Assembly (NCBI GenBank): GCA_021776465.1
Contig: JAJFFU010000216.1
Span: 1-64,000 of the forward strand
DNA from: Parvularculaceae bacterium
Lineage (GTDB): Bacteria > Pseudomonadota > Alphaproteobacteria > Caulobacterales > Parvularculaceae
Length of the DNA: 64,000 bases
Direction: 5' to 3'
Shown one piece after another: positions 1 through 64,000 of this stretch. The stretch's first letter is position 1. Every line of letters starts with the position of its first letter. The notes under the pieces are model-generated. The model saw nothing but the letters and a program-made list of their open reading frames with translations, did not search any database and was not told the origin of the DNA. A program made the translations under genes and the position numbers.

Positions 1-147
1 CTTTTTGGGTTTTGGCATTGTTTTGCTTTATTCTCGGGGAGGGGTCTTCCCTGTTTGGGGTGAACCATGCCAGCCCTCAAGGCAGCCCCTGATTAGGGGC
101 TACTTAGGGGCTATTTTGTGAGCGATTACTATTGTCAGAAAGAATCG

Positions 148-155
148 TATATTTG
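148..155 (+). promoter_or_regulatory. -7 box upstream of the tmRNA acceptor piece
   Basis: TATATTTG matches the Bacteroidota -7 consensus TAnnTTTG. No TTTG lies 19-20 bp upstream, so the match is half a promoter. A start near 160 would put the 5' end just before the tmRNA acceptor piece. Confidence 0.4.
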
Positions 156-160
156 GAGAA

Positions 161-545
161 TCAATTTGTTTGAGTTCTTTCTAGTATCGTTCTGCCTGGA
201 CGCGGGTTCGACGCCCGCCACCTCCACACTTCCTGTTATAAGCGCAAGCTTTAGGAGTAAGAGTGGTGCAGATGCCGGAGTCTTTACTGACATTGAAGGC
301 TATCCCTGCATTTACCGCTTGACACGGTGCCTGATGCAAGATAAGGGCATGTTAACGTGTCACAGAAACTCTTCCTTGGACGCTGCAAAGCAAAAAAGGA
401 ATATGGGGGTGGTCTTGGATTTGACAGCAGATCGTAATAAGAATTAGAATTGATATGCCTTTAAATGGCAACCTTGATACCATGAAAGCCGCAGCTTAAT
501 TGCTGCCGTATTTCAACCGCTTTTGGGAATAGCGTCAAACCCACT
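161..545 (+). ncRNA. ssrA: Circularly permuted (two-piece) tmRNA
   Basis: tmRNA rescues stalled ribosomes and tags the nascent peptide for degradation. The 3' tRNA-like half comes first: T-stem GCGGG (202-206), T-loop TTCGACG, CCCGC (214-218), acceptor strand CACCTCC (219-225) and discriminator A226. The 5' half lies about 180 nt downstream: GGGGGTG (405-411), which pairs with 219-225 over seven pairs including one G-U, followed by GGATTTGAC (417-425), the conserved tmRNA D-loop-like motif. The tag frame runs 467-499 (GGC AAC CTT GAT ACC ATG AAA GCC GCA GCT TAA) and ends in Ala-Ala-Ala. Its stop lies in a GCAGC/GCTGC hairpin, as in the usual tag-stop helix. A terminator follows at 546. The order acceptor piece, intervening segment (227-404), coding piece is that of permuted tmRNA genes. 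CCA is not encoded (CAC follows A226). The outer ends, resume codon and pseudoknots are estimates. Confidence 0.85.
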
Positions 546-577
546 GAAAGCTCCGACTAGCGGAGCTTTCTTGTTTT
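546..577 (+). terminator. Rho-independent terminator of the tmRNA gene
   Basis: GAAAGCTCCG (546-555), loop ACTAG, CGGAGCTTTC (561-570), then TTGTTTT: a perfect 10-bp stem with a T-rich tail. Confidence 0.9.
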
Positions 578-603
578 CATGTGATTTCTGTGGGAAACTA
601 TTC

Positions 604-14979: not shown

Positions 14980-15027
14980 ATTATCTTGATGAATAATTTG
15001 GTAATTGGTTATTTCTTTTTAGATTTG
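14980..15027 (+). promoter_or_regulatory. Dyad motif plus canonical Bacteroidota promoter
   Basis: TTTG (14997-15000), exactly 19 bp, TAGATTTG (15020-15027): a full consensus match. A diverged dyad, ATTATCTTGATGAATAAT (14980-14997), overlaps the -33 box. A start near 15034 precedes the ATG at 15052. Bases 14854-14979 show nothing further. Confidence 0.85.
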
Positions 15028-15051
15028 ACCTGTTAGATTAATTTTTACTCT

Positions 15052-31255: not shown

Positions 31256-32112
31256 CTGTTCATTTGTGCTCGTTTCTGATATTCCTGAATATTATTTTCC
31301 GCCATTTCACAATATTCTTGCGCCACATCAATTCCTATCCAGTCACGTCCTTGCGCCACCGCAGCTATTCCTGTTGTTCCGCTTCCCATAAAAGGGTCTA
31401 ATACAATGCCTTCTGGCGATGCTCCAACGCAACGTTGAGCTAACTCGATGGGAAAGGGAGCTGGATGGTCGTTACCTTTAACCTGCGGTATTTCCCACAC
31501 ATCCGTCATTTTATTTGCCCCTTTGGTCAGTTTAAAATCGGGCTTGACGATCAAATATATTACTTCAAAGGTTGGGAGAAAATACCCGGCATTAAAGTTG
31601 ATGCCTCCGGCCCGTTTCCATATTATAACTTGTCTCACAGGAAACCCCTCTAAGATGTCTGCTCTGTCTTGTAAAATTCCACCCTGAACTCGCCATTTAT
31701 GATTATAAAATATAGCGCCGTCACGCCGCAACACACGCATCATGGAGGACAAACAATTACGCTGCCATTTTACATATTCGTCGTGAGGCATATTGTCGCC
31801 ATGATTGGCATATCCATTTATCAATTCTGCTTTAGGCCATTTCCCTCCACGCCCATCTTTCATTCCATTTCCAGTAGAGTTTTTAAGATTGTAAGGAGGG
31901 GAAGTAACGATCACGCCAACTGACTCGGCGGGAATCTTATCCATAATCTTAATACAGTCACCACAATGCACTTTTCCAATAAATTTCTTTAACGCTTTGT
32001 TGTCCACAGGAATAGGAGAAGGCTTGATTGGTTCTGGTGCGCCGACAAGAGTCTTCATTACATTATCAAAGGATGCCTGAATAGGCTGTATGAGTTTGGG
32101 CTTACGTGACAT
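31252..32112 (-). CDS. DNA amino-methyltransferase (N4-cytosine/N6-adenine type)
   Basis: 286 aa. Beta-class order: motif IV VIVTSPPYNLK near residue 89, DVWEIPQVKGNDHPAPFPIE near residue 210 and motif I LDPFMGSGTTGIAA near residue 245. TSPPY is typical of N4-cytosine enzymes, and MvaI's own partner is an N4C enzyme, which fits the neighbouring endonuclease. It protects DNA from that endonuclease. Overlaps the transposase end by 11 bp. Confidence 0.9.
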   Translation of the reverse strand: MSRKPKLIQPIQASFDNVMKTLVGAPEPIKPSPIPVDNKALKKFIGKVHCGDCIKIMDKIPAESVGVIVTSPPYNLKNSTGNGMKDGRGGKWPKAELINGYANHGDNMPHDEYVKWQRNCLSSMMRVLRRDGAIFYNHKWRVQGGILQDRADILEGFPVRQVIIWKRAGGINFNAGYFLPTFEVIYLIVKPDFKLTKGANKMTDVWEIPQVKGNDHPAPFPIELAQRCVGASPEGIVLDPFMGSGTTGIAAVAQGRDWIGIDVAQEYCEMAENNIQEYQKRAQMNR

Positions 32113-33013
32113 TAGTTAATTGCTTATAGGTTACTCTACGTCCATTTGCGTTGTAGAACACACGGCTAAGGGTTTTATCCCACGTTGAATAAGCATGGTT
32201 ATGCCGGAAAGTAAATTCATCAACATACCGAGCTAAATGCGCAGGACTCATTTGGTGATAAATCCCAATGAACCCACGCTTCAATAATGCCCAAAATGAT
32301 TCGATTCCATTAGTAGAGGCCATCCCCTTAACATACTCTCCTACTGAGTGCTTAACTACCTTATGGTGGTAATCTAAAAGTCCTTGATAAGCCCTGTGAT
32401 CATCAGTATAGACATAGCTTCCGGGTAAAACGTGTTTTTTGATTTTTTTATGCAGTGTCTCTTTTTGAATGTTGGAAACAGGCATTGACACCACTCGCCC
32501 ATCTCGTTGCTTTATTCCCAAGACGGCTATCTTTCCAACACTTCCCCGCCCCATGTGTAACTTCTTATCTGAGTGCTTATTTTTCTCTTTACCTCCCACA
32601 AAAGTTTCATCTACCTCAATTTCTCCACTGAACAGGCCACCGCTACCCTCGGTTAGAGCTTCACGTATTCGGTGTGCTAAAAACCAAGCAGTCTTTTGTG
32701 TCACTCCAAGAGTTTTTGCCAGTTGAACACTTGATATTCCCTTTGAATGAGAAGTAAGAATCCATACCGCCATAAGCCATTTTTGAAGCGGAACCTTACT
32801 TTCAGCCAATAGAGAGCCAGTACGAACGCTGAATTGCTTGCGACACCCTCCACATTTCCACCGTTTCTGTTTTTCAAGCCGATATACCCTGTGATTCCCA
32901 CAGCGAGGACAGTAGGTGCCCCGGGGCCACCGAGCTTGTTCGATGTACTTCTCACAGGAGTTTTCATCAGGAAATTTCTTTATAAAACCAAAAATATCAA
33001 TATTGTCTTTCAT
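32102..33013 (-). CDS. IS1595-family (ISXO2-like) transposase
   Basis: 303 aa. An N-terminal zinc ribbon (YCPRCGNHRVYRL, KCGGCRKQFS), HTH-like LAKTLGVTQKTAWFLAHRIR, then the DDE-type core: EIEVDETFVGGKEKN, VYTDDHRAYQGL and TNGIESFWALLKRG. Full length and apparently intact. A -7 box TATCTTTG lies upstream (33049 to 33042), inside the element. Confidence 0.95.
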   Translation of the reverse strand: MKDNIDIFGFIKKFPDENSCEKYIEQARWPRGTYCPRCGNHRVYRLEKQKRWKCGGCRKQFSVRTGSLLAESKVPLQKWLMAVWILTSHSKGISSVQLAKTLGVTQKTAWFLAHRIREALTEGSGGLFSGEIEVDETFVGGKEKNKHSDKKLHMGRGSVGKIAVLGIKQRDGRVVSMPVSNIQKETLHKKIKKHVLPGSYVYTDDHRAYQGLLDYHHKVVKHSVGEYVKGMASTNGIESFWALLKRGFIGIYHQMSPAHLARYVDEFTFRHNHAYSTWDKTLSRVFYNANGRRVTYKQLTNVT

Positions 33014-39447: not shown

Positions 39448-39917
39448 GTGATAAATTAATCCTAGAATACCCCGACAAGGCTGCGGCTTATCTGGAAAAG
39501 AAGCTGTTTTCTAAGATGAAGTCCAATGGGCGAATGACCTATATGGTTCGAAAGGAAAAACATCTAACCACAACAATAGTGATCAAATGCTTAACTCCTA
39601 CCCCGGAGAGATTTTTCATGAATCTAGGTCTTGACATCGCCAATACTCTTTTGCCTTATAAACGGATTTACTATCGAGCGCGGCTGCGTAAATTTAAACG
39701 GGTTATAGATGCGTGTGAGAAGCGTATTGAAGATGTAAAGTCTGAGCGGCTTATATCTTACAAAAACTTTGCAAAAAACACTCTTAAGCACAAGGAGCTT
39801 CAGGATTATATCCAGCAAACAGGTCGTGTCCTTCACAATGCTAAATGTAAGATGCACGCCTGTAAAACCTATAGTGAAATGACTCAAAACAGGTTAAAAC
39901 TCCTTCTCGGTGAGTAA
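39444..39917 (+). CDS. Hypothetical basic protein, 157 aa
   Basis: Start ATG 39444 (ATGA overlap). The second half is highly basic and helical (RIYYRARLRKFKRVIDACEK). Not recognised; its charge is opposite to that of the large acidic neighbour. Confidence 0.65.
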   Translation: MSDKLILEYPDKAAAYLEKKLFSKMKSNGRMTYMVRKEKHLTTTIVIKCLTPTPERFFMNLGLDIANTLLPYKRIYYRARLRKFKRVIDACEKRIEDVKSERLISYKNFAKNTLKHKELQDYIQQTGRVLHNAKCKMHACKTYSEMTQNRLKLLLGE

Positions 39918-40281
39918 AGACCAAACCATAGAAGAGGTTTCCTCTGTGATGCGGGCATTATCTAGGTGTCGGTTTTCACTCTCAAACGAGAAAGAACTTC
40001 AAACCGAGATCAGCAAGAAATTTGAAGAGCTGGGTTTTGATGAAATTAAAAGAGAACACAGGTTAGATTGTGATAGCGTAGTTGATTTTTTCTATCAAGG
40101 TGTAGCGATAGAGGTGAAAATTAAAGGAAGTGCGAAAGCCATCTATAGACAGTGCGAAAGGTATTGCCAGATCAAAGAAGTGAATGCTCTGATTCTAGTC
40201 ACTAACAAAGCGATGGGGTTTCCAGAGGAGATTCATGACAAACCATGCTATGTGATCAACCTCGGTAAAGCATGGTTTTAA
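39910..40281 (+). CDS. PD-(D/E)XK nuclease-like protein
   Basis: 123 aa, start GTG 39910. ELQTEISKKFEELGFDEIKR, then VVDFFYQGVAIEVKIKGS gives D...ExK, and IYRQCERYCQIKEV plus ALILVTNKAM complete a restriction-endonuclease-like core. Likely a structure- or repair-type phage nuclease; its substrate cannot be read from sequence. Confidence 0.7.
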   Translation: MSKDQTIEEVSSVMRALSRCRFSLSNEKELQTEISKKFEELGFDEIKREHRLDCDSVVDFFYQGVAIEVKIKGSAKAIYRQCERYCQIKEVNALILVTNKAMGFPEEIHDKPCYVINLGKAWF

Positions 40282-44835: not shown

Positions 44836-45063
44836 ATGGACGCAAATAAACAGCTCGAAGAAAAAGCACAGGATCATTATCACTCACATGATATGATCAC
44901 TGAAGAAGGGCAATACGTTCTTCTTTCAGACGCAGTAAGAATAACTACTGAAATTAAATCTCAACTTGAAATAGAAAGAAAGATAGTCGATCACATTCTT
45001 CATAATGCATTGACGCCAAAATTTCTTCGTGAATACATTACTGAAAATCGAAAAATTACATGA
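44836..45063 (+). CDS. Hypothetical protein, 75 aa
   Basis: Helical, acidic, with HYHSHDMITEEGQYVL. Its stop overlaps the helicase start (ATGA), so it belongs to the helicase operon. Confidence 0.65.
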   Translation: MDANKQLEEKAQDHYHSHDMITEEGQYVLLSDAVRITTEIKSQLEIERKIVDHILHNALTPKFLREYITENRKIT

Positions 45064-46733
45064 GGACTTACGGACGGATAGTATTAGAAGAAGACCCTTA
45101 TGCACGCGGAAAGGATGTTAAACCGAAGTGGGCTATTCATGAGCTTGAGCCACATGTGTGCATAAAGCTAAAGAATACTTTTGCGCAGATTGATAAAACA
45201 TCGGTGAGCCCTTTTCGTTTTATCAATGATCCAGAGATGTGTGGGGACTTATTATGGTTCATGACAAGGTATCCCTTGGAAATATCAGAAAAGGACCTTG
45301 GAAGGCTTAAAAGAGGCCGTAAGAAGTTTGAAAATAAGATTGATGAAATAGAGCATTATTTTGACCCCAACTACAAACCAGTTGCGTTGGATTTTAAAGA
45401 TGGTCAGAAAGCGCGAGATTATCAAGCCACAGGGAAAGATATCTACATGGCGGCTAAACGCACCTGTTGCGCTGACGATATAGGTTTGGGAAAAACCGTT
45501 CTCTCAATCTGTAGCTTTACTGAAAAAAAATGTCTTCCGGCTTTAGTTACAGTACAGACCCATCTTACCAAACAATGGAAGGCCGAGATTGAGAAGTTTC
45601 TTGATGTTACCGTTCATATAATTAAAACCAGAAAACCCTATAAACTGCCTCCGGCAGAGGTGTATATCAGTAAATACGGAAGTTTGTCTGGATGGGTGGA
45701 TGTATTCGCCAAAGGAATGTTCAAGTCAGTAGTTTTTGACGAGGTCCAAGAACTTCGCCGAGAGGAGTCCCAGAAATACCAAGCCGCGAAAATAGTGGCT
45801 GATCGAGCGCGGTACGTGCTCGGTCTTTCGGCAACACCTATCTATAATTATGGTGATGAGATATTTAACATCATGCAAGTTATTGATCCTAATGTACTTG
45901 GTAATCGATATGATTTTATGCGCGAATGGGTCATGGATAAAACTGTTACTGATCCAAAGGCTCTTGGGGCTTACCTTAGAGAGAAGCACGCTTTATTCAA
46001 GCGCACCAGAGCGGATGTTGGAAGAGAATTACCCCCGGTGAACACAATCATACACACAGTACCAATTGATTATAAGGAGGTCGAGAATAGCCGCTCACTT
46101 GCTAAAATGCTGGCCCAACAAACCCTAAATGGATCGTTTGTTGAAAGAGGTAGAGCAGCGAGAGACCTTAGTATTATGTTGCGGCAGTCCACCGGGATAG
46201 CCAAGGCGAAGGGAGTTGCGGATTACGTACGGATTCTGCTTGAAAATGGAGAGCCAGTTCTTTTAGCAGGGTGGCATCGGGACGTTTATGATATATGGCT
46301 GAAGGAATTGGAAGGATTCAATCCGCTGATGTATACCGGAACTGAAAGTGAAGCGCAAAAGAGAAAAACCAAAGAAGGGTTTATCAATGGGGATAGCAAC
46401 CTAATGATCATATCTTTACGGTCTGGGGTGGGCCTTGATGGGCTTCAGAACAGTAGATGTAAATATGTATTAATTGGGGAACTGGATTGGTCGCCTGAGG
46501 TGCATAATCAAATTATAGGTCGTGTGGATCGAGATGGTCAGGAAAATGAAGTGACGGCAATCTTTCTTACAGTTGATTACGGGTCCGATCCTAGTATTGT
46601 AGATATCTGCGGTTTGAAAGCTTCTCAATCTCACGGAATTGTTAACCCCCTTCTAGCACCCGCCCAGCAGTATAGCGATGGGGCACGATTGAAAAAACTA
46701 GCAGAAGACTATCTTAGTAGTCTTTCATCTTAA
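45060..46733 (+). CDS. SNF2-family DNA helicase/translocase
   Basis: 557 aa, superfamily 2. Q-like DYQATGKDIYMAAKR, motif I DDIGLGKTVLS near residue 140, motif II SVVFDEVQELR near residue 224 (DEVQ in place of DEAH), motif III LGLSATPIYN near residue 260, motif V VGLDGLQ near residue 462 and motif VI IGRVDRDGQ near residue 485. Phage members remodel DNA during replication, recombination or transcription. Length is typical of the compact phage form. Confidence 0.95.
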   Translation: MRTYGRIVLEEDPYARGKDVKPKWAIHELEPHVCIKLKNTFAQIDKTSVSPFRFINDPEMCGDLLWFMTRYPLEISEKDLGRLKRGRKKFENKIDEIEHYFDPNYKPVALDFKDGQKARDYQATGKDIYMAAKRTCCADDIGLGKTVLSICSFTEKKCLPALVTVQTHLTKQWKAEIEKFLDVTVHIIKTRKPYKLPPAEVYISKYGSLSGWVDVFAKGMFKSVVFDEVQELRREESQKYQAAKIVADRARYVLGLSATPIYNYGDEIFNIMQVIDPNVLGNRYDFMREWVMDKTVTDPKALGAYLREKHALFKRTRADVGRELPPVNTIIHTVPIDYKEVENSRSLAKMLAQQTLNGSFVERGRAARDLSIMLRQSTGIAKAKGVADYVRILLENGEPVLLAGWHRDVYDIWLKELEGFNPLMYTGTESEAQKRKTKEGFINGDSNLMIISLRSGVGLDGLQNSRCKYVLIGELDWSPEVHNQIIGRVDRDGQENEVTAIFLTVDYGSDPSIVDICGLKASQSHGIVNPLLAPAQQYSDGARLKKLAEDYLSSLSS

Positions 46734-54129: not shown

Positions 54130-54909
54130 ATGCTGCGAGTCAACGATCGGGATTTTGAGGTATGCATTGAAAACCTAATCAACAACAAGAAGAGCTTTAT
54201 AGTTGAAAAAAAACGCAGGGACCGCATCATCATCGTCAATGGTAAAAAAGTAGTCGGGCTTCAAAAAAATGTTACCATCAAACTGCCGCACAAGAAAAAG
54301 CGATCCGTCATCAGCCTGTTTGCTAATGTTAAGAAAAGTTTTCAGCGGTACGCCCAGAGCCAAGAAGGAGTAATAGAACCCATTGAACAACTTCACAGCC
54401 CCACCTATAGAAGTAAGAAAGACTTCTCTTCTCTGGACATGGGAGAAAAGATGTATTATGTTGATGTCTCTCACTGCTATTGGAGGATCGCATACCTACT
54501 TGGATACATAACCATTAGAATGTATAAATCGGTCCTGACCGAAGACAAGACAAACGATTATAAACTTTGGCGTAATATCGCATTAAGCTCAACTATTGCC
54601 CCAAAAATTGTTACTCACTTTGAGTATGGTGAATTGATTGAAGAGGTTAAAGAAGATACCAGCGCCACTAAGATCATGTACCAGAACATCCGATTCACGG
54701 CCTATAACATTATAGGGGAGGCTAAAGAAGCCATTGGTAAGAAAGGATGTCTTAACTATCGGATAGACGGAATGCTGATTCTGCCCAAGCACTTGCGTAA
54801 AGTCAAAAAGGTGTTTGAAAAACATGATCTTCTATATGAAGTGGTGGAATGCCGGAAAGTAGGAGAGTATTCTTACCTCTATAATGGAGAAAAAATTAAA
54901 AAATTCTGA
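54130..54909 (+). CDS. Possible degenerate polymerase-like protein
   Basis: 259 aa. A basic N-terminal part, then MYYVDVSHCYWRIAYLLGYI near residue 115 and CLNYRIDGMLILPKHL near residue 210. The D-V-S-x-C-Y block looks like family B polymerase motif A (DxxSLYP), and Y-R-I-D-G could stand for motif C. The protein is far too short for a full polymerase. Related proteins occur in mobile elements of Bacteroidota, as I recall. Last gene before the large RNA region. Confidence 0.4.
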   Translation: MLRVNDRDFEVCIENLINNKKSFIVEKKRRDRIIIVNGKKVVGLQKNVTIKLPHKKKRSVISLFANVKKSFQRYAQSQEGVIEPIEQLHSPTYRSKKDFSSLDMGEKMYYVDVSHCYWRIAYLLGYITIRMYKSVLTEDKTNDYKLWRNIALSSTIAPKIVTHFEYGELIEEVKEDTSATKIMYQNIRFTAYNIIGEAKEAIGKKGCLNYRIDGMLILPKHLRKVKKVFEKHDLLYEVVECRKVGEYSYLYNGEKIKKF

Positions 54910-54998
54910 TTTTTCTTTCTTTTTTTTAAATTTTTTTTATTTTACCTATTACACCTACCCTCATTGGGTTGTAGAGCTTTTCGTGCATGATTGAATTA

Positions 54999-55016
54999 AT
55001 TATTCTTAAAGATAAT
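54999..55016. promoter_or_regulatory. Dyad motif upstream of the large RNA
   Basis: ATTATTCTTAAAGATAAT, a near-palindrome of the same family as 31027-31044, ending 12 bp before the -33 box. The preceding 54910-54998 is T-rich and without a gene. Confidence 0.55.
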
Positions 55017-55027
55017 TGTAACCTTCG

Positions 55028-55058
55028 TTTGGAAGTTCCGTTCTAAACACTATATTTG
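55028..55058 (+). promoter_or_regulatory. Canonical Bacteroidota promoter of the large RNA
   Basis: TTTG (55028-55031), exactly 19 bp, TATATTTG (55051-55058). Full consensus match. The predicted start near 55064 coincides with the first hairpin of the RNA, and no start codon follows for 700 nt. Confidence 0.9.
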
Positions 55059-55063
55059 ACCTG

Positions 55064-55750
55064 TCGGTGCAACTTTTACCGACACTCTTTTAGAGGTCTT
55101 TGACGTACTGTGTTCCACTTCTCTCCGAAGAAATTAGCCGAGAGTCGCCACGATCCTGAAACCACAATCTTTCACAAGTGAGGAATCGGAGAAGCGATAC
55201 TTTGAGGTGGTAGGAGAGTAACAACCACGGAAATCGAACAACCGAGTAACAGACCACAAGTGATTGTGCTGTTACCCCGACAAGAAACTACCTTACAGTG
55301 AGGACTAGTAACGTTAAGGGTATTATTAATACGGCTTTACGGAATGTGATGCATTGTACATGTGTCGATCGTTCGCTCGATCATAAGCCGCTAAGAAGTT
55401 AGTAGGTGGGGGTAAGATATAAATGACAAATATCCTTGTCAACCTTCACCTATGGAAAACTAGACGCGCAACCCAGCGATGAGATTTGTCAGGCTGAACT
55501 GTTTCCGTAGGCGCAAGCTATTGCGGGCCTCGTAATGAGATAGGTGAGTACAAACGGTGAGACTGGGCTCTGTGAGAATAAGTATACCGAAGCGAGGCAA
55601 GTGTTCACATTAGTAGAAGGCGGTTGAAAGAGTACCGCTGGTGGTTAGGATCGATGAGCTCTCCTATTTAGAAATCGTATGTTGCTTATGACCGTGCTAG
55701 ACACAATGAGACTGTAGTTGAGCTTCCCTACTAACTTCCTCTTTTTCACT
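55064..55750 (+). ncRNA. Large structured non-coding RNA (candidate ornate large RNA)
   Basis: About 700 nt with no plausible gene on either strand, driven by a perfect promoter. Local structure is dense: TGTCGGT/ACCGACA (55062-55068 / 55078-55084); GTAACAG/CTGTTAC (55246-55252 / 55269-55275) enclosing CACAA-GTGA-TTGTG (55255-55268), a stem capped by a GNRA tetraloop; TAGGTGG pairing with CACCTA near 55402-55454; and GATCG/CGATC around 55370. Size, phage context and gene-free neighbourhood recall GOLLD and ROOL, the large ornate RNAs of phages. I cannot match a consensus by eye, so it may be a relative or a new class. The 3' end is uncertain; no classical terminator was found before 55763. 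Confidence 0.75.
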
Positions 55751-55762
55751 TAAAACCACACC

Positions 55763-55987
55763 ATGAAAACAGATATGATCAAATACAGAAAGGAACTCGT
55801 TGAGATTCTTTCTACTGCTAAAGATAAAATCGATGAGCTTGAAGAGGAGTTTGAGACCTATCTTGATTTCTTACATGATGAAAACAAAGAAATGGCACTT
55901 GAGACTTGGAATGACAAGCACGACGAGCTAATCACACTTCAGGAAGCGATTAGAGAATGGATGGATACGGCGGGAAACATCAAATAA
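55763..55987 (+). CDS. Hypothetical coiled-coil protein, 74 aa
   Basis: Acidic and helical throughout (ELVEILSTAKDKIDELEEEF). Starts 13 nt after the RNA region's last bases, so it may share the transcript. Confidence 0.7.
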   Translation: MKTDMIKYRKELVEILSTAKDKIDELEEEFETYLDFLHDENKEMALETWNDKHDELITLQEAIREWMDTAGNIK

Positions 55988-56007
55988 TTTCACTAGAAAC
56001 AGAAACT

Positions 56008-56721
56008 ATGACAACGCTAAAAAAATTAAATGAGCACCTTGAAAGCACAAAGGAACTCAGAGAGCAAAAGAATGCTGAATACACCAAAGTATGCAATGAT
56101 GAGCATAAAGAACTTGAGGTGATTCGACAGAAATATAAGAGTGGAATCGACACTCTTAAAACCATTGTTGATGATTTCGATAACGACATACGGGACACTG
56201 AGAATAAAATTCGAGAAGAGGAAATCGATCAGGTCTGGTTAGAAGCCCAGTCTAAAAATGAACTAAGCGAGTTCTACTTCCTGTCCATGATGAATAAATG
56301 TGGGCTCGATACATATGGATCGATTGATATCAAACATAAGAAAACCCTCAAGAATGGCATTGATATCTGGATGATAATTGACGACAACTATAGGGCCTAC
56401 AAATTATATCTTGCGTTTTCAGGACAAGAGCTGGTAGGCACATCCTATCGAGAGACTCCAAAACACGCAGGCGATGCAACGCTTCCGTTCTCTTTTATAG
56501 GCGACTTCAAGCAAGTGCTTACTGGGTTGAAAACACGACGTGGGTACATCAATGAGAGGGAGATGAATCTTACATTTCAGGAATGGGCGAAAGAATTGAA
56601 AAAGATTGACGTTGATACATTTGACGCCGTGCCAATGAATGATGCCACCCTTAAAGAGATAAAGGAAGGGGTTAAGAAGTACTGGTGTCCCTTTTCTTGG
56701 GAAAGAAGAGGTGAGAAATAA
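56008..56721 (+). CDS. Hypothetical protein with N-terminal coiled coil
   Basis: 237 aa from ATG 56008. Residues 1-75 form a charged coiled coil (LKKLNEHLESTKELREQKNA), followed by an alpha/beta domain. Function unknown. Confidence 0.7.
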   Translation: MTTLKKLNEHLESTKELREQKNAEYTKVCNDEHKELEVIRQKYKSGIDTLKTIVDDFDNDIRDTENKIREEEIDQVWLEAQSKNELSEFYFLSMMNKCGLDTYGSIDIKHKKTLKNGIDIWMIIDDNYRAYKLYLAFSGQELVGTSYRETPKHAGDATLPFSFIGDFKQVLTGLKTRRGYINEREMNLTFQEWAKELKKIDVDTFDAVPMNDATLKEIKEGVKKYWCPFSWERRGEK

Positions 56722-63834: not shown

Positions 63835-63873
63835 ATCAGCAGGGGGTTAAGCCAATAATATTTGTTTATGTTT

Positions 63874-63960
63874 GAGTATGTAACAGCGCAAGAGCGTTGT
63901 TTGGAGACCCGAGTTTTTCATGGTTGAGGGTTGTAGGTTCGAATCCTACCATACTCACCA
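63874..63960 (+). tRNA. tRNA-like RNA with atypical anticodon region
   Basis: 87 nt including CCA. A perfect acceptor stem GAGTATG/CATACTC, discriminator A and CCA, and a perfect T-arm GTAGG-TTCGAAT-CCTAC. The D region folds as an odd hairpin (ACAGCGC-AAGA-GCGTTGT) without the usual GG loop, and no 5-bp/7-nt anticodon arm is evident; the best hairpin is GTTTGG-AGAC-CCGAGT. It may be a decayed tRNA, a tRNA with an unusual fold or a tRNA mimic, so no amino acid is assigned. Confidence 0.6.
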
Positions 63961-64000
63961 TATCGGGACAATTAGATGTCAGCCCGATTCATAAACCATG

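What the first reader, a model, noticed from the sequence alone, without database searches (positions are those of the whole stretch)
54910..55762. Large promoter-driven structured RNA, possibly GOLLD/ROOL-like or new
Seen: 850 bp without a gene in an otherwise gene-packed window, a perfect TTFG-type promoter (TTTG, N19, TATATTTG) ending exactly before the first hairpin, and several long stems, one with a GTGA tetraloop. Known: GOLLD and ROOL are large ornate RNAs of similar size found in phages. Inference: this is such an RNA or a new class, in a phage of Bacteroidota.
Basis: partly seen in the sequence, partly recalled or inferred. Interest (0 to 1): 0.85.

Follow-up and report, generated by a model that had tools for sequence, protein, structure and literature searches.

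The report
Orphan 680-nt phage noncoding RNA candidate
A virus that probably infects Bacteroidota bacteria carries an 850-base stretch without a gene that looks like its own RNA gene with a real promoter; it matches no known RNA family, and its start could pair with the message of another viral gene, but no relatives could be found to prove its structure or function.

Summary
The gap is real: no ORF of 60 aa or more in 54910-55762, the longest gap in the contig's first 146 kb. The promoter is real: its extended form occurs three times in the contig, in none of 20 shuffles; published numbering puts the transcript start at 55063, first base of a 7-bp hairpin. GC of the RNA part is 45.6%, other gaps 37.1%.

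'Ornate structure' is not shown: fold energy, local hairpins and longest helix are as in shuffles. No Rfam family matches credibly, even at E 10, so it is no recognisable GOLLD or ROOL. No homologue was found in the collections searched, so covariation could not be tested.

New lead: RNA 55085-55105 is complementary (21 bp, one G-U) to the unstructured leader of contig gene 65943-66197, outside the window; 0 of 1000 shuffles do as well against gene leaders, 1 of 60 against the whole contig.

Best reading: a phage noncoding RNA, perhaps a trans-acting antisense regulator; rivals are an ornate RNA or a long 5' leader. A Bacteroidota host is supported.

The parts
54910..54945 (+). A/T-rich inverted repeat and T-run after the upstream gene 54130-54909; could end the upstream transcript
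   Evidence: inverted repeats I1/I2/I4, which reach back to 54890; inferred from sequence. The terminator scan did not list it
55011..55025 (+). upstream box GATAATTGTAACCTT, repeated exactly at contig 68901-68915
   Evidence: 82-nt match of 76% identity at contig 68887-68968; exact copies
55028..55031 (+). -33 element TTTG
   Evidence: sequence; motif count
55051..55058 (+). -7 element TATATTTG, followed by ACCT as at contig 15020 and 68941
   Evidence: only TAHHTTTG in 54910-55763 on either strand
55063..55740 (+). candidate noncoding RNA of about 680 nt; 3' end not determined
   Evidence: predicted +1 from published -7 numbering; no ORF; GC 45.6%, 96th percentile of contig windows of that size; no Rfam match
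55063..55083 (+). 5' hairpin GTCGGTG/TACCGAC, beginning at the predicted +1
   Evidence: mean pairing probability 0.88
55085..55105 (+). segment complementary (21 contiguous pairs, one G-U) to contig 65904-65924, leader of gene 65943-66197 outside the window
55246..55275 (+). hairpin GTAACAG/CTGTTAC plus CACAA/TTGTG with GTGA tetraloop
   Evidence: mean pairing probabilities 0.99 and 0.95; local hairpin energies of the RNA are not unusual against shuffles
55395..55738 (+). region closed by a perfect 12-bp long-range inverted repeat (55395-55406 with 55727-55738), which competes with the local 12-pair stem 55402-55413/55442-55453
   Evidence: 14 of 60 shuffles hold a perfect helix of 12 bp or more
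55763..55987 (+). downstream gene (74 aa, unknown); no TAHHTTTG of its own and no intrinsic terminator recognised between it and the 5' hairpin of the RNA
   Evidence: no family match

Best explanation
55063 to about 55740 is transcribed from its own phage promoter as a noncoding RNA of about 680 nt. Its 5' part (about nt 10-48) most likely acts in trans: it pairs with the A-rich, unstructured leader of another phage gene (contig 65943-66197, an 84-aa protein of unknown function) from about -48 to the start codon and so blocks ribosome entry. The remaining 600 nt would be a structured or protein-binding body that stabilises or presents it. Supported here: the promoter, the absence of a gene, the raised GC and the complementarity. 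Inferred: transcription itself, the 3' end, pairing in the cell, the sign of regulation, the role of the body.
For: Extended promoter 3 times in the contig, 0 in 20 shuffles; the other two copies sit 21-29 nt before the start of an ORF, here no ORF of 60 aa follows for 700 nt. GC of 55063-55740 is 45.6% against 37.1% in 62 other gaps of 60 nt or more, rising after the promoter and falling at the end. Complementarity: ungapped score 49; 0 of 1000 dinucleotide shuffles of the RNA reach it against 239 gene leaders; of 967 sense-strand tiles of the contig only the 5 that contain this 5' end reach it against 223 leaders. The duplex is predicted at -48 kcal/mol, with a further 7-bp block in register across a 6x6 loop. 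The target leader is unusually open (z +1.94; 198 of 200 shuffles fold at least as well). No TAHHTTTG lies in contig 65500-66200 on either strand, so a shared operator is not obvious.
Against: Against the whole contig on both strands 1 of 60 shuffles reaches the same score. Random natural segments, half from each strand, reach 49 in 23 of 1000 cases; the 15 that the call lists all come from the minus strand. The lead was noticed after the fact in a BLAST listing where its E-value was 0.051. In the full-length ensemble the antisense segment is mostly paired (unpaired probability 0.06-0.57 per base over 55085-55105). In the duplex-energy scan this leader ranked seventh, at -45.4 kcal/mol, behind six leaders with broken duplexes down to -53.3. 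No homologue, no covariation, no expression data, and no structural signal in 55063-55740. With no terminator recognised, the transcript may run on into 55763.
Confidence: 0.33

Rival explanations
1. A large ornate structural RNA that works like GOLLD or ROOL (abundant, perhaps multimeric) but has no sequence relation to them; the complementarity to 65943 is incidental.
For: Size (about 680 nt), phage location, own promoter, hairpin at +1, GC enrichment, several confident helices. A missing energy z-score does not exclude structure: 16S rRNA 681-1360 gave z -0.02 in the same test.
Against: No credible Rfam match even at E 10; fold, hairpins and longest helix as in shuffles; ARAGORN finds no tRNA in the window, while GOLLD and ROOL are often near tRNA islands (PMC12286853, passages).
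Confidence: 0.22
2. A long 5' leader (cis-acting) of the operon that begins at 55763, transcribed from the 55051 promoter without a stop in between.
For: No other TAHHTTTG and no intrinsic terminator after the 5' hairpin between 55063 and 55763; genes 55763 and 55957 follow on the same strand.
Against: The two sister promoters sit 21-29 nt before an ORF, so a 700-nt leader would be exceptional among them; no riboswitch or leader family matches.
Confidence: 0.22
3. Remains of a decayed gene or neutral filler behind a promoter that once drove a gene.
For: Sister promoters drive ORFs; structure not beyond chance; no homologue found.
Against: Stops in all six frames; the 8 longest open stretches have no PHROGs match and in Pfam only one chance match at E 0.22; against the contig's own other proteins the best is E 0.001, 24.6 bits, over 61 aa on the minus strand; GC of the RNA part well above the mean of the other gaps.
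Confidence: 0.13
4. The shared 21-mer at 55085 and 65904 is a DNA operator for a phage regulator in inverted orientation, not an RNA pairing site.
For: Only these two copies within 4 mismatches; a third place, contig 115415 on the minus strand, has 5 mismatches. The 55085 copy holds the palindrome CTCT-TTT-AGAG just after a promoter; the 6-nt block between the two shared blocks differs.
Against: The other copy breaks the palindrome; no TAHHTTTG in contig 65500-66200.
Confidence: 0.1

Closest known systems
GOLLD RNA
   Same: phage or prophage encoded, several hundred nt, no protein, unknown function (PMC12286853, passages)
   Different: no Rfam match here even at E 10; no tRNA called in the window
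ROOL RNA
   Same: phage or prophage encoded, unknown function (PMC12286853, passages); similar size class (recalled)
   Different: no Rfam match; abundance and multimer formation untested; no tRNA called in the window
Phage K long noncoding RNAs
   Same: long phage transcripts of unknown function, likened to GOLLD and ROOL by location and abundance (PMC9241854, one passage)
   Different: those are seen as abundant transcripts of a Staphylococcus phage near tRNA genes; this one is sequence-only
Trans-encoded antisense RNAs that cover a translation start (general kind, recalled)
   Same: long complementarity to an open leader next to the start codon
   Different: far longer than usual small RNAs; the target lies on the same phage, about 10.8 kb away; no experimental support

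Membership tests
GOLLD | match to the Rfam covariance model | tested here: not met
   cmscan of all 4227 families: 0 at gathering in the window; at E up to 10 on 54880-55800 only ASpks and SNORD26, E about 6. No known GOLLD was run as positive control
GOLLD | covarying stems with a conserved 3' region | not testable with these tools
   no homologue found to align
GOLLD | phage or prophage locus, often near tRNA genes | tested here: inconclusive
   viral-type contig (endolysin), but ARAGORN finds no tRNA in the window; tRNAs only at contig 147.5-148.1 kb; a tRNA-like cloverleaf lies 8 kb away
ROOL | match to the Rfam covariance model | tested here: not met
   as for GOLLD; no positive control was run
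ROOL | homo-oligomeric nanocage | not testable with these tools
   needs native gel or cryo-EM
Bacteroidota primary-sigma promoter | -33 TTTG and -7 TANNTTTG (TAHHTTTG in F. johnsoniae) | tested here: met
   consensus from PMC6847099 and PMC7366714 (passages), which also report that the -33 motif is not evident in F. johnsoniae
Trans-acting antisense RNA | complementarity to a translation initiation region beyond chance | tested here: met
   0 of 1000 shuffles against 239 leaders; weaker against the whole contig, 1 of 60, and 23 of 1000 natural segments of mixed strand
Trans-acting antisense RNA | pairing conserved by compensatory change | not testable with these tools
   no relatives of the RNA found; the core pattern gave 2 IMG/VR matches judged chance; the target protein was searched only in PHROGs and Pfam
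Cis-acting 5' leader | co-transcription with the downstream gene | not testable with these tools
   no terminator after the 5' hairpin and no second TAHHTTTG recognised; needs RNA data

The most novel reading that the evidence does not exclude
An undescribed class of large phage RNA that joins a 5' antisense arm, aimed at a start site of the same phage, to a body of about 600 nt, in a lineage of large Bacteroidota viruses whose virion-side proteins mostly have no relatives in the libraries searched.
Probability: 0.17. Interest if true: 0.75.

Novelty: new member of a known kind. Interest (0 to 1): 0.42.

Why it matters
Few long noncoding RNAs of phages are known, and GOLLD and ROOL still have no described function (PMC12286853, passages). 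If this one pairs with a start site of its own phage, it gives a concrete, testable job to a long phage RNA, in a phylum that lacks Shine-Dalgarno starts and so should be open to occlusion of A-rich leaders. If it does not, the case is a warning: a promoter and handsome stems in one sequence do not establish an ornate RNA.

Tried and rejected
Homologue hunts that found nothing: blastn at low identity in 50,697 phage records and 72,556 plasmid records; an exact 20-mer of the RNA in IMG/VR; the RNA in 100 genomes, the bin and its relatives (only the bin itself), 385 genomes of its class (6 other genomes with matches of 20-37 nt), the Hymenobacter rigui genome and the L097 record (two matches at E 0.54), and 345 genomes of the class of H. 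rigui (5 genomes with matches of 23-39 nt); these short matches do not extend. Some genomes are in more than one of these sets. Neighbour proteins 54130-54909 and 55957-56721 gave no relatives by pattern in IMG/VR, nor the first in genome contigs or phages. Virion-side proteins: one in 149 relatives (only the bin), one in phages (none), one in IMG/VR (none), one in phages (none), that one in 289 genomes of the bin's class (only the bin) and in 335 of the H. rigui class (one marginal 17-bit match). The helicase 45060-46733 has 59 relatives in IMG/VR and 27 in genome contigs; apart from the small gene 39910-40281, which is often shared, few neighbours match, so it was dropped as marker. Promoter pattern in IMG/VR: 1 match (L076), judged chance from its sequence and ORFs. 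tmRNA pattern: 3 matches, of which L097 is a permuted tmRNA. Antisense-core pattern: 2 matches, judged chance, each with 19-23 nt of similarity to the RNA at that site.

Controls that I discarded: the control segments gave energies down to -122.7 kcal/mol, which I put down to segments antisense to the leaders themselves; (196 of 600 at 49 or more) runs bled from one leader into the next; repaired. One search has no separators between leaders, which can only raise the shuffles. ORF sets were chosen by a crude greedy rule on length.

Rejected ideas: replication origin at 55 kb (GC skew does not change sign there); pairing of 55440 with the tRNA-like element (score 39.5 equals the shuffle mean maximum of 39.2). 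A fold of protein 54130-54909 without alignment was useless (mean pLDDT 37.6). 16S rRNA was not found in the bin, so its phylum rests on the tmRNA argument.

Full report
What the window is. The window is bases 1-64000 of contig C131 (148,517 bases) of a genome bin, G000. Genes run mostly on the plus strand to about 77 kb and mostly on the minus strand after that, and GC skew changes sign near 77 kb. Recognisable genes are few: an SNF2-type helicase, an N6/N4 methylase, an AAA ATPase, a LuxR/sigma-region-4 regulator, a topoisomerase-I-like protein, an endolysin, a glycosyltransferase and a weak HerA-like ATPase. Among the proteins scanned (only part of the contig's ORFs) no terminase, portal or capsid gene was named, apart from one weak terminase match at E 0.012. 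I treat it as a virus because of the gene packing and the endolysin; this is inference.

Host. Of 385 genomes of the bin's class, 349 hold a permuted tmRNA over the family cut-off. That family was built from Alphaproteobacteria, Betaproteobacteria and Cyanobacteria (PMC11915505, passages), so the bin is most likely alphaproteobacterial (inference). The contig itself reads as Bacteroidota: 10 of 170 ORFs of 100 aa or more have a Shine-Dalgarno-like 4-mer against 21.9 expected, and A is frequent at -13 (0.54), -12 (0.61) and -3 (0.50). These are positions where A promotes initiation in Flavobacterium johnsoniae (PMC6847099, passages). Promoters of the TTTG/TANNTTTG type occur. I conclude that the virus infects Bacteroidota and was misbinned, or that the contig is chimeric: its last kilobase holds tRNA-Leu and the start of a glnB-like gene (recognised by eye in the sequence).

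The observation. No ORF of 60 aa or more lies in 54910-55762; the longest open frames are 50 aa (plus) and 65 aa (minus), and the 8 longest have no PHROGs match and one chance Pfam match at E 0.22. The stretch is the longest gap in the first 146 kb. The promoter TTTG-N19-TATATTTG ends at 55058. With the published numbering (G = -5) the start is 55063, where a 7-bp hairpin begins. The 82 nt around the promoter recur at 68887-68968 with 76% identity, and a third copy of the core lies at 14997-15031. The extended core is seen 3 times and in 0 of 20 shuffles; the short motif alone is not beyond chance (7 seen, shuffle mean 2.8, maximum 7). The two sister copies lie 21-29 nt before an ORF start (the ORF at 15 kb is shorter than 60 aa); here none follows.

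Structure. The minimum free energy of 55060-55762 is -192.1 kcal/mol, z -0.22, with 6 of 20 shuffles folding at least as well; the reverse strand gives z -0.11. Of 24 windows of 150 nt over 54700-55999 the lowest z is -2.86, in the A/T-rich part upstream, within the range of 80 control windows (lowest -4.39). Three parts of the RNA give z -0.88, -0.82 and 0.0; yardsticks in the same test were RNase P -2.84, four rRNA pieces from -2.86 to -0.02, and two coding controls -2.43 and -0.79, so the test discriminates poorly. The six best local hairpins and the longest helix are average: 12, 25, 27, 38, 30 and 30 of 60 shuffles match or beat the hairpins, 14 of 60 the helix. Cut out on their own, 55395-55500 and 55230-55330 fold at z -2.50 and -2.11, two others at -0.71 and 0.04, and the 5' 63 nt at -1.70; these pieces were picked by eye. 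Confident helices exist (GTGA hairpin 0.95-0.99; 55402-55413/55442-55453 0.88; 5' hairpin 0.88), but they are not evidence of selection. What does stand out is GC: 45.6% over 55063-55740, 96th percentile of contig windows of that size, against 37.1% in the 62 other gaps of 60 nt or more. The whole gap, promoter region included, is 42.2%, and 1 of the 21 other gaps of 180 nt or more is higher (44.6%).

Families and relatives. Rfam: 0 matches in the window at gathering scores; at E up to 10 on the stretch only ASpks (minus strand, E 6.1) and SNORD26 (E 5.9), both chance. No homologue was found in phage or plasmid records, in 100 genomes of the bin and its relatives, in 385 genomes of its class, or in 345 genomes of the class of Hymenobacter rigui, a Bacteroidota species whose genome gave the closest helicase. 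Pattern scans of IMG/VR gave only chance matches to the RNA. All of these need fairly close similarity, so a diverged homologue is not excluded, and metagenome contigs could not be scanned. Hence no covariation test.

The antisense lead. A BLAST listing of the RNA against its own contig showed 34 nt of 79% identity to the minus strand at 65904-65937, E 0.051. That is the gap before gene 65943-66197 (P0001, 84 aa; one weak PHROGs match at E 0.12, no Pfam match). RNA 55085-55105 pairs with 65904-65924 in 21 contiguous pairs with one G-U; five more pairs follow across a bulge, and ACUUUUA pairs with UAAAAGU across a 6x6 loop; predicted -48.0 kcal/mol. Against 239 gene leaders (-60 to +20) 0 of 1000 shuffles reach its score of 49 (mean 32.6, sd 2.6, maximum 48). 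Of 967 sense-strand tiles of the contig against 223 leaders only 5 reach 49, all of which contain this 5' end. Less favourable: against the whole contig on both strands 1 of 60 shuffles reaches it; 23 of 1000 random segments, half from each strand, do (the 15 listed are all from the minus strand); by duplex energy with loops allowed this leader ranks only seventh; and in the full-length ensemble the segment is mostly paired. The leader itself is open: 198 of 200 shuffles fold at least as well. The sequence alone cannot separate RNA pairing from an inverted DNA operator; the absence of a TAHHTTTG in contig 65500-66200 and the broken palindrome there lean towards RNA.

Verdict. A real promoter and a real gap make a noncoding transcript likely (I would say about 0.7); that it acts by pairing with the 65943 leader is my best single mechanism (0.33), ahead of an ornate structural RNA and a long cis leader (0.22 each). 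It is not a recognisable GOLLD or ROOL. Of literature searches, one search listed 5 papers, none, and one search listed 5 papers with at least 3 of 4 terms, none of which held 'Bacteroid'; they cover open-licence papers only, so I make no claim that it is unpublished. Papers were seen as passages found by term only (PMC12286853, PMC11915505, PMC9241854, PMC6847099, PMC7366714); others only as search listings.

Noticed in passing
window 134-590; L097 2899-3136: Circularly permuted tmRNA on a virus with Bacteroidota-type expression signals: ARAGORN tag GNLDTMKAAA*, RF04321 43 bits, just under the 47 cut-off. A second viral contig (L097, IMG/VR 3300029286_000313) has one over the cut-off at 69.7 bits (ARAGORN did not call it), and none of its 12 ORFs examined has an SD-like motif. 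The permuted Rfam model was built from Alpha-, Betaproteobacteria and Cyanobacteria (PMC11915505, passages), so permuted tmRNAs in Bacteroidota-type viruses may be worth a study of their own.
   Followed up: partly
window 63873-63963: tRNA-like cloverleaf: acceptor closed by 8 bp with ACCA end, normal T arm, but an 8-bp D-position stem with a 4-nt loop and a 17-nt anticodon-position loop; z -2.69. ARAGORN does not call it; Rfam tRNA gives only 15.5 bits.
   Followed up: partly
contig C131, right end, about 147.5-148.5 kb (outside the window): tRNA-Gln and two tRNA-Leu and the start of a glnB-like gene (by eye) at higher GC: cellular flank or chimeric join; the bin looks alphaproteobacterial, the virus Bacteroidota-like.
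   Followed up: partly
contig 128894-129820 and 132998-140557 (outside the window): HerA/FtsK-like ATPase (DUF87, E 0.00093, below the Pfam cut-off) not far from two very large proteins without clear relatives in the searches made; no clear terminase was recognised. Possibly an unusual virus lineage.
   Followed up: no
window 32102-33013 and contig 118022-118996: Two proteins of PHROG 25593 (unknown function) in one element; distant relatives of the first in Streptococcus phages are annotated transposase.
   Followed up: no
contig leaders near 2745, 2940, 19903, 22048 and 60207: High scores of minus-strand control segments suggest that several gene leaders share long direct repeats with other parts of the contig; not looked into.
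   Followed up: no
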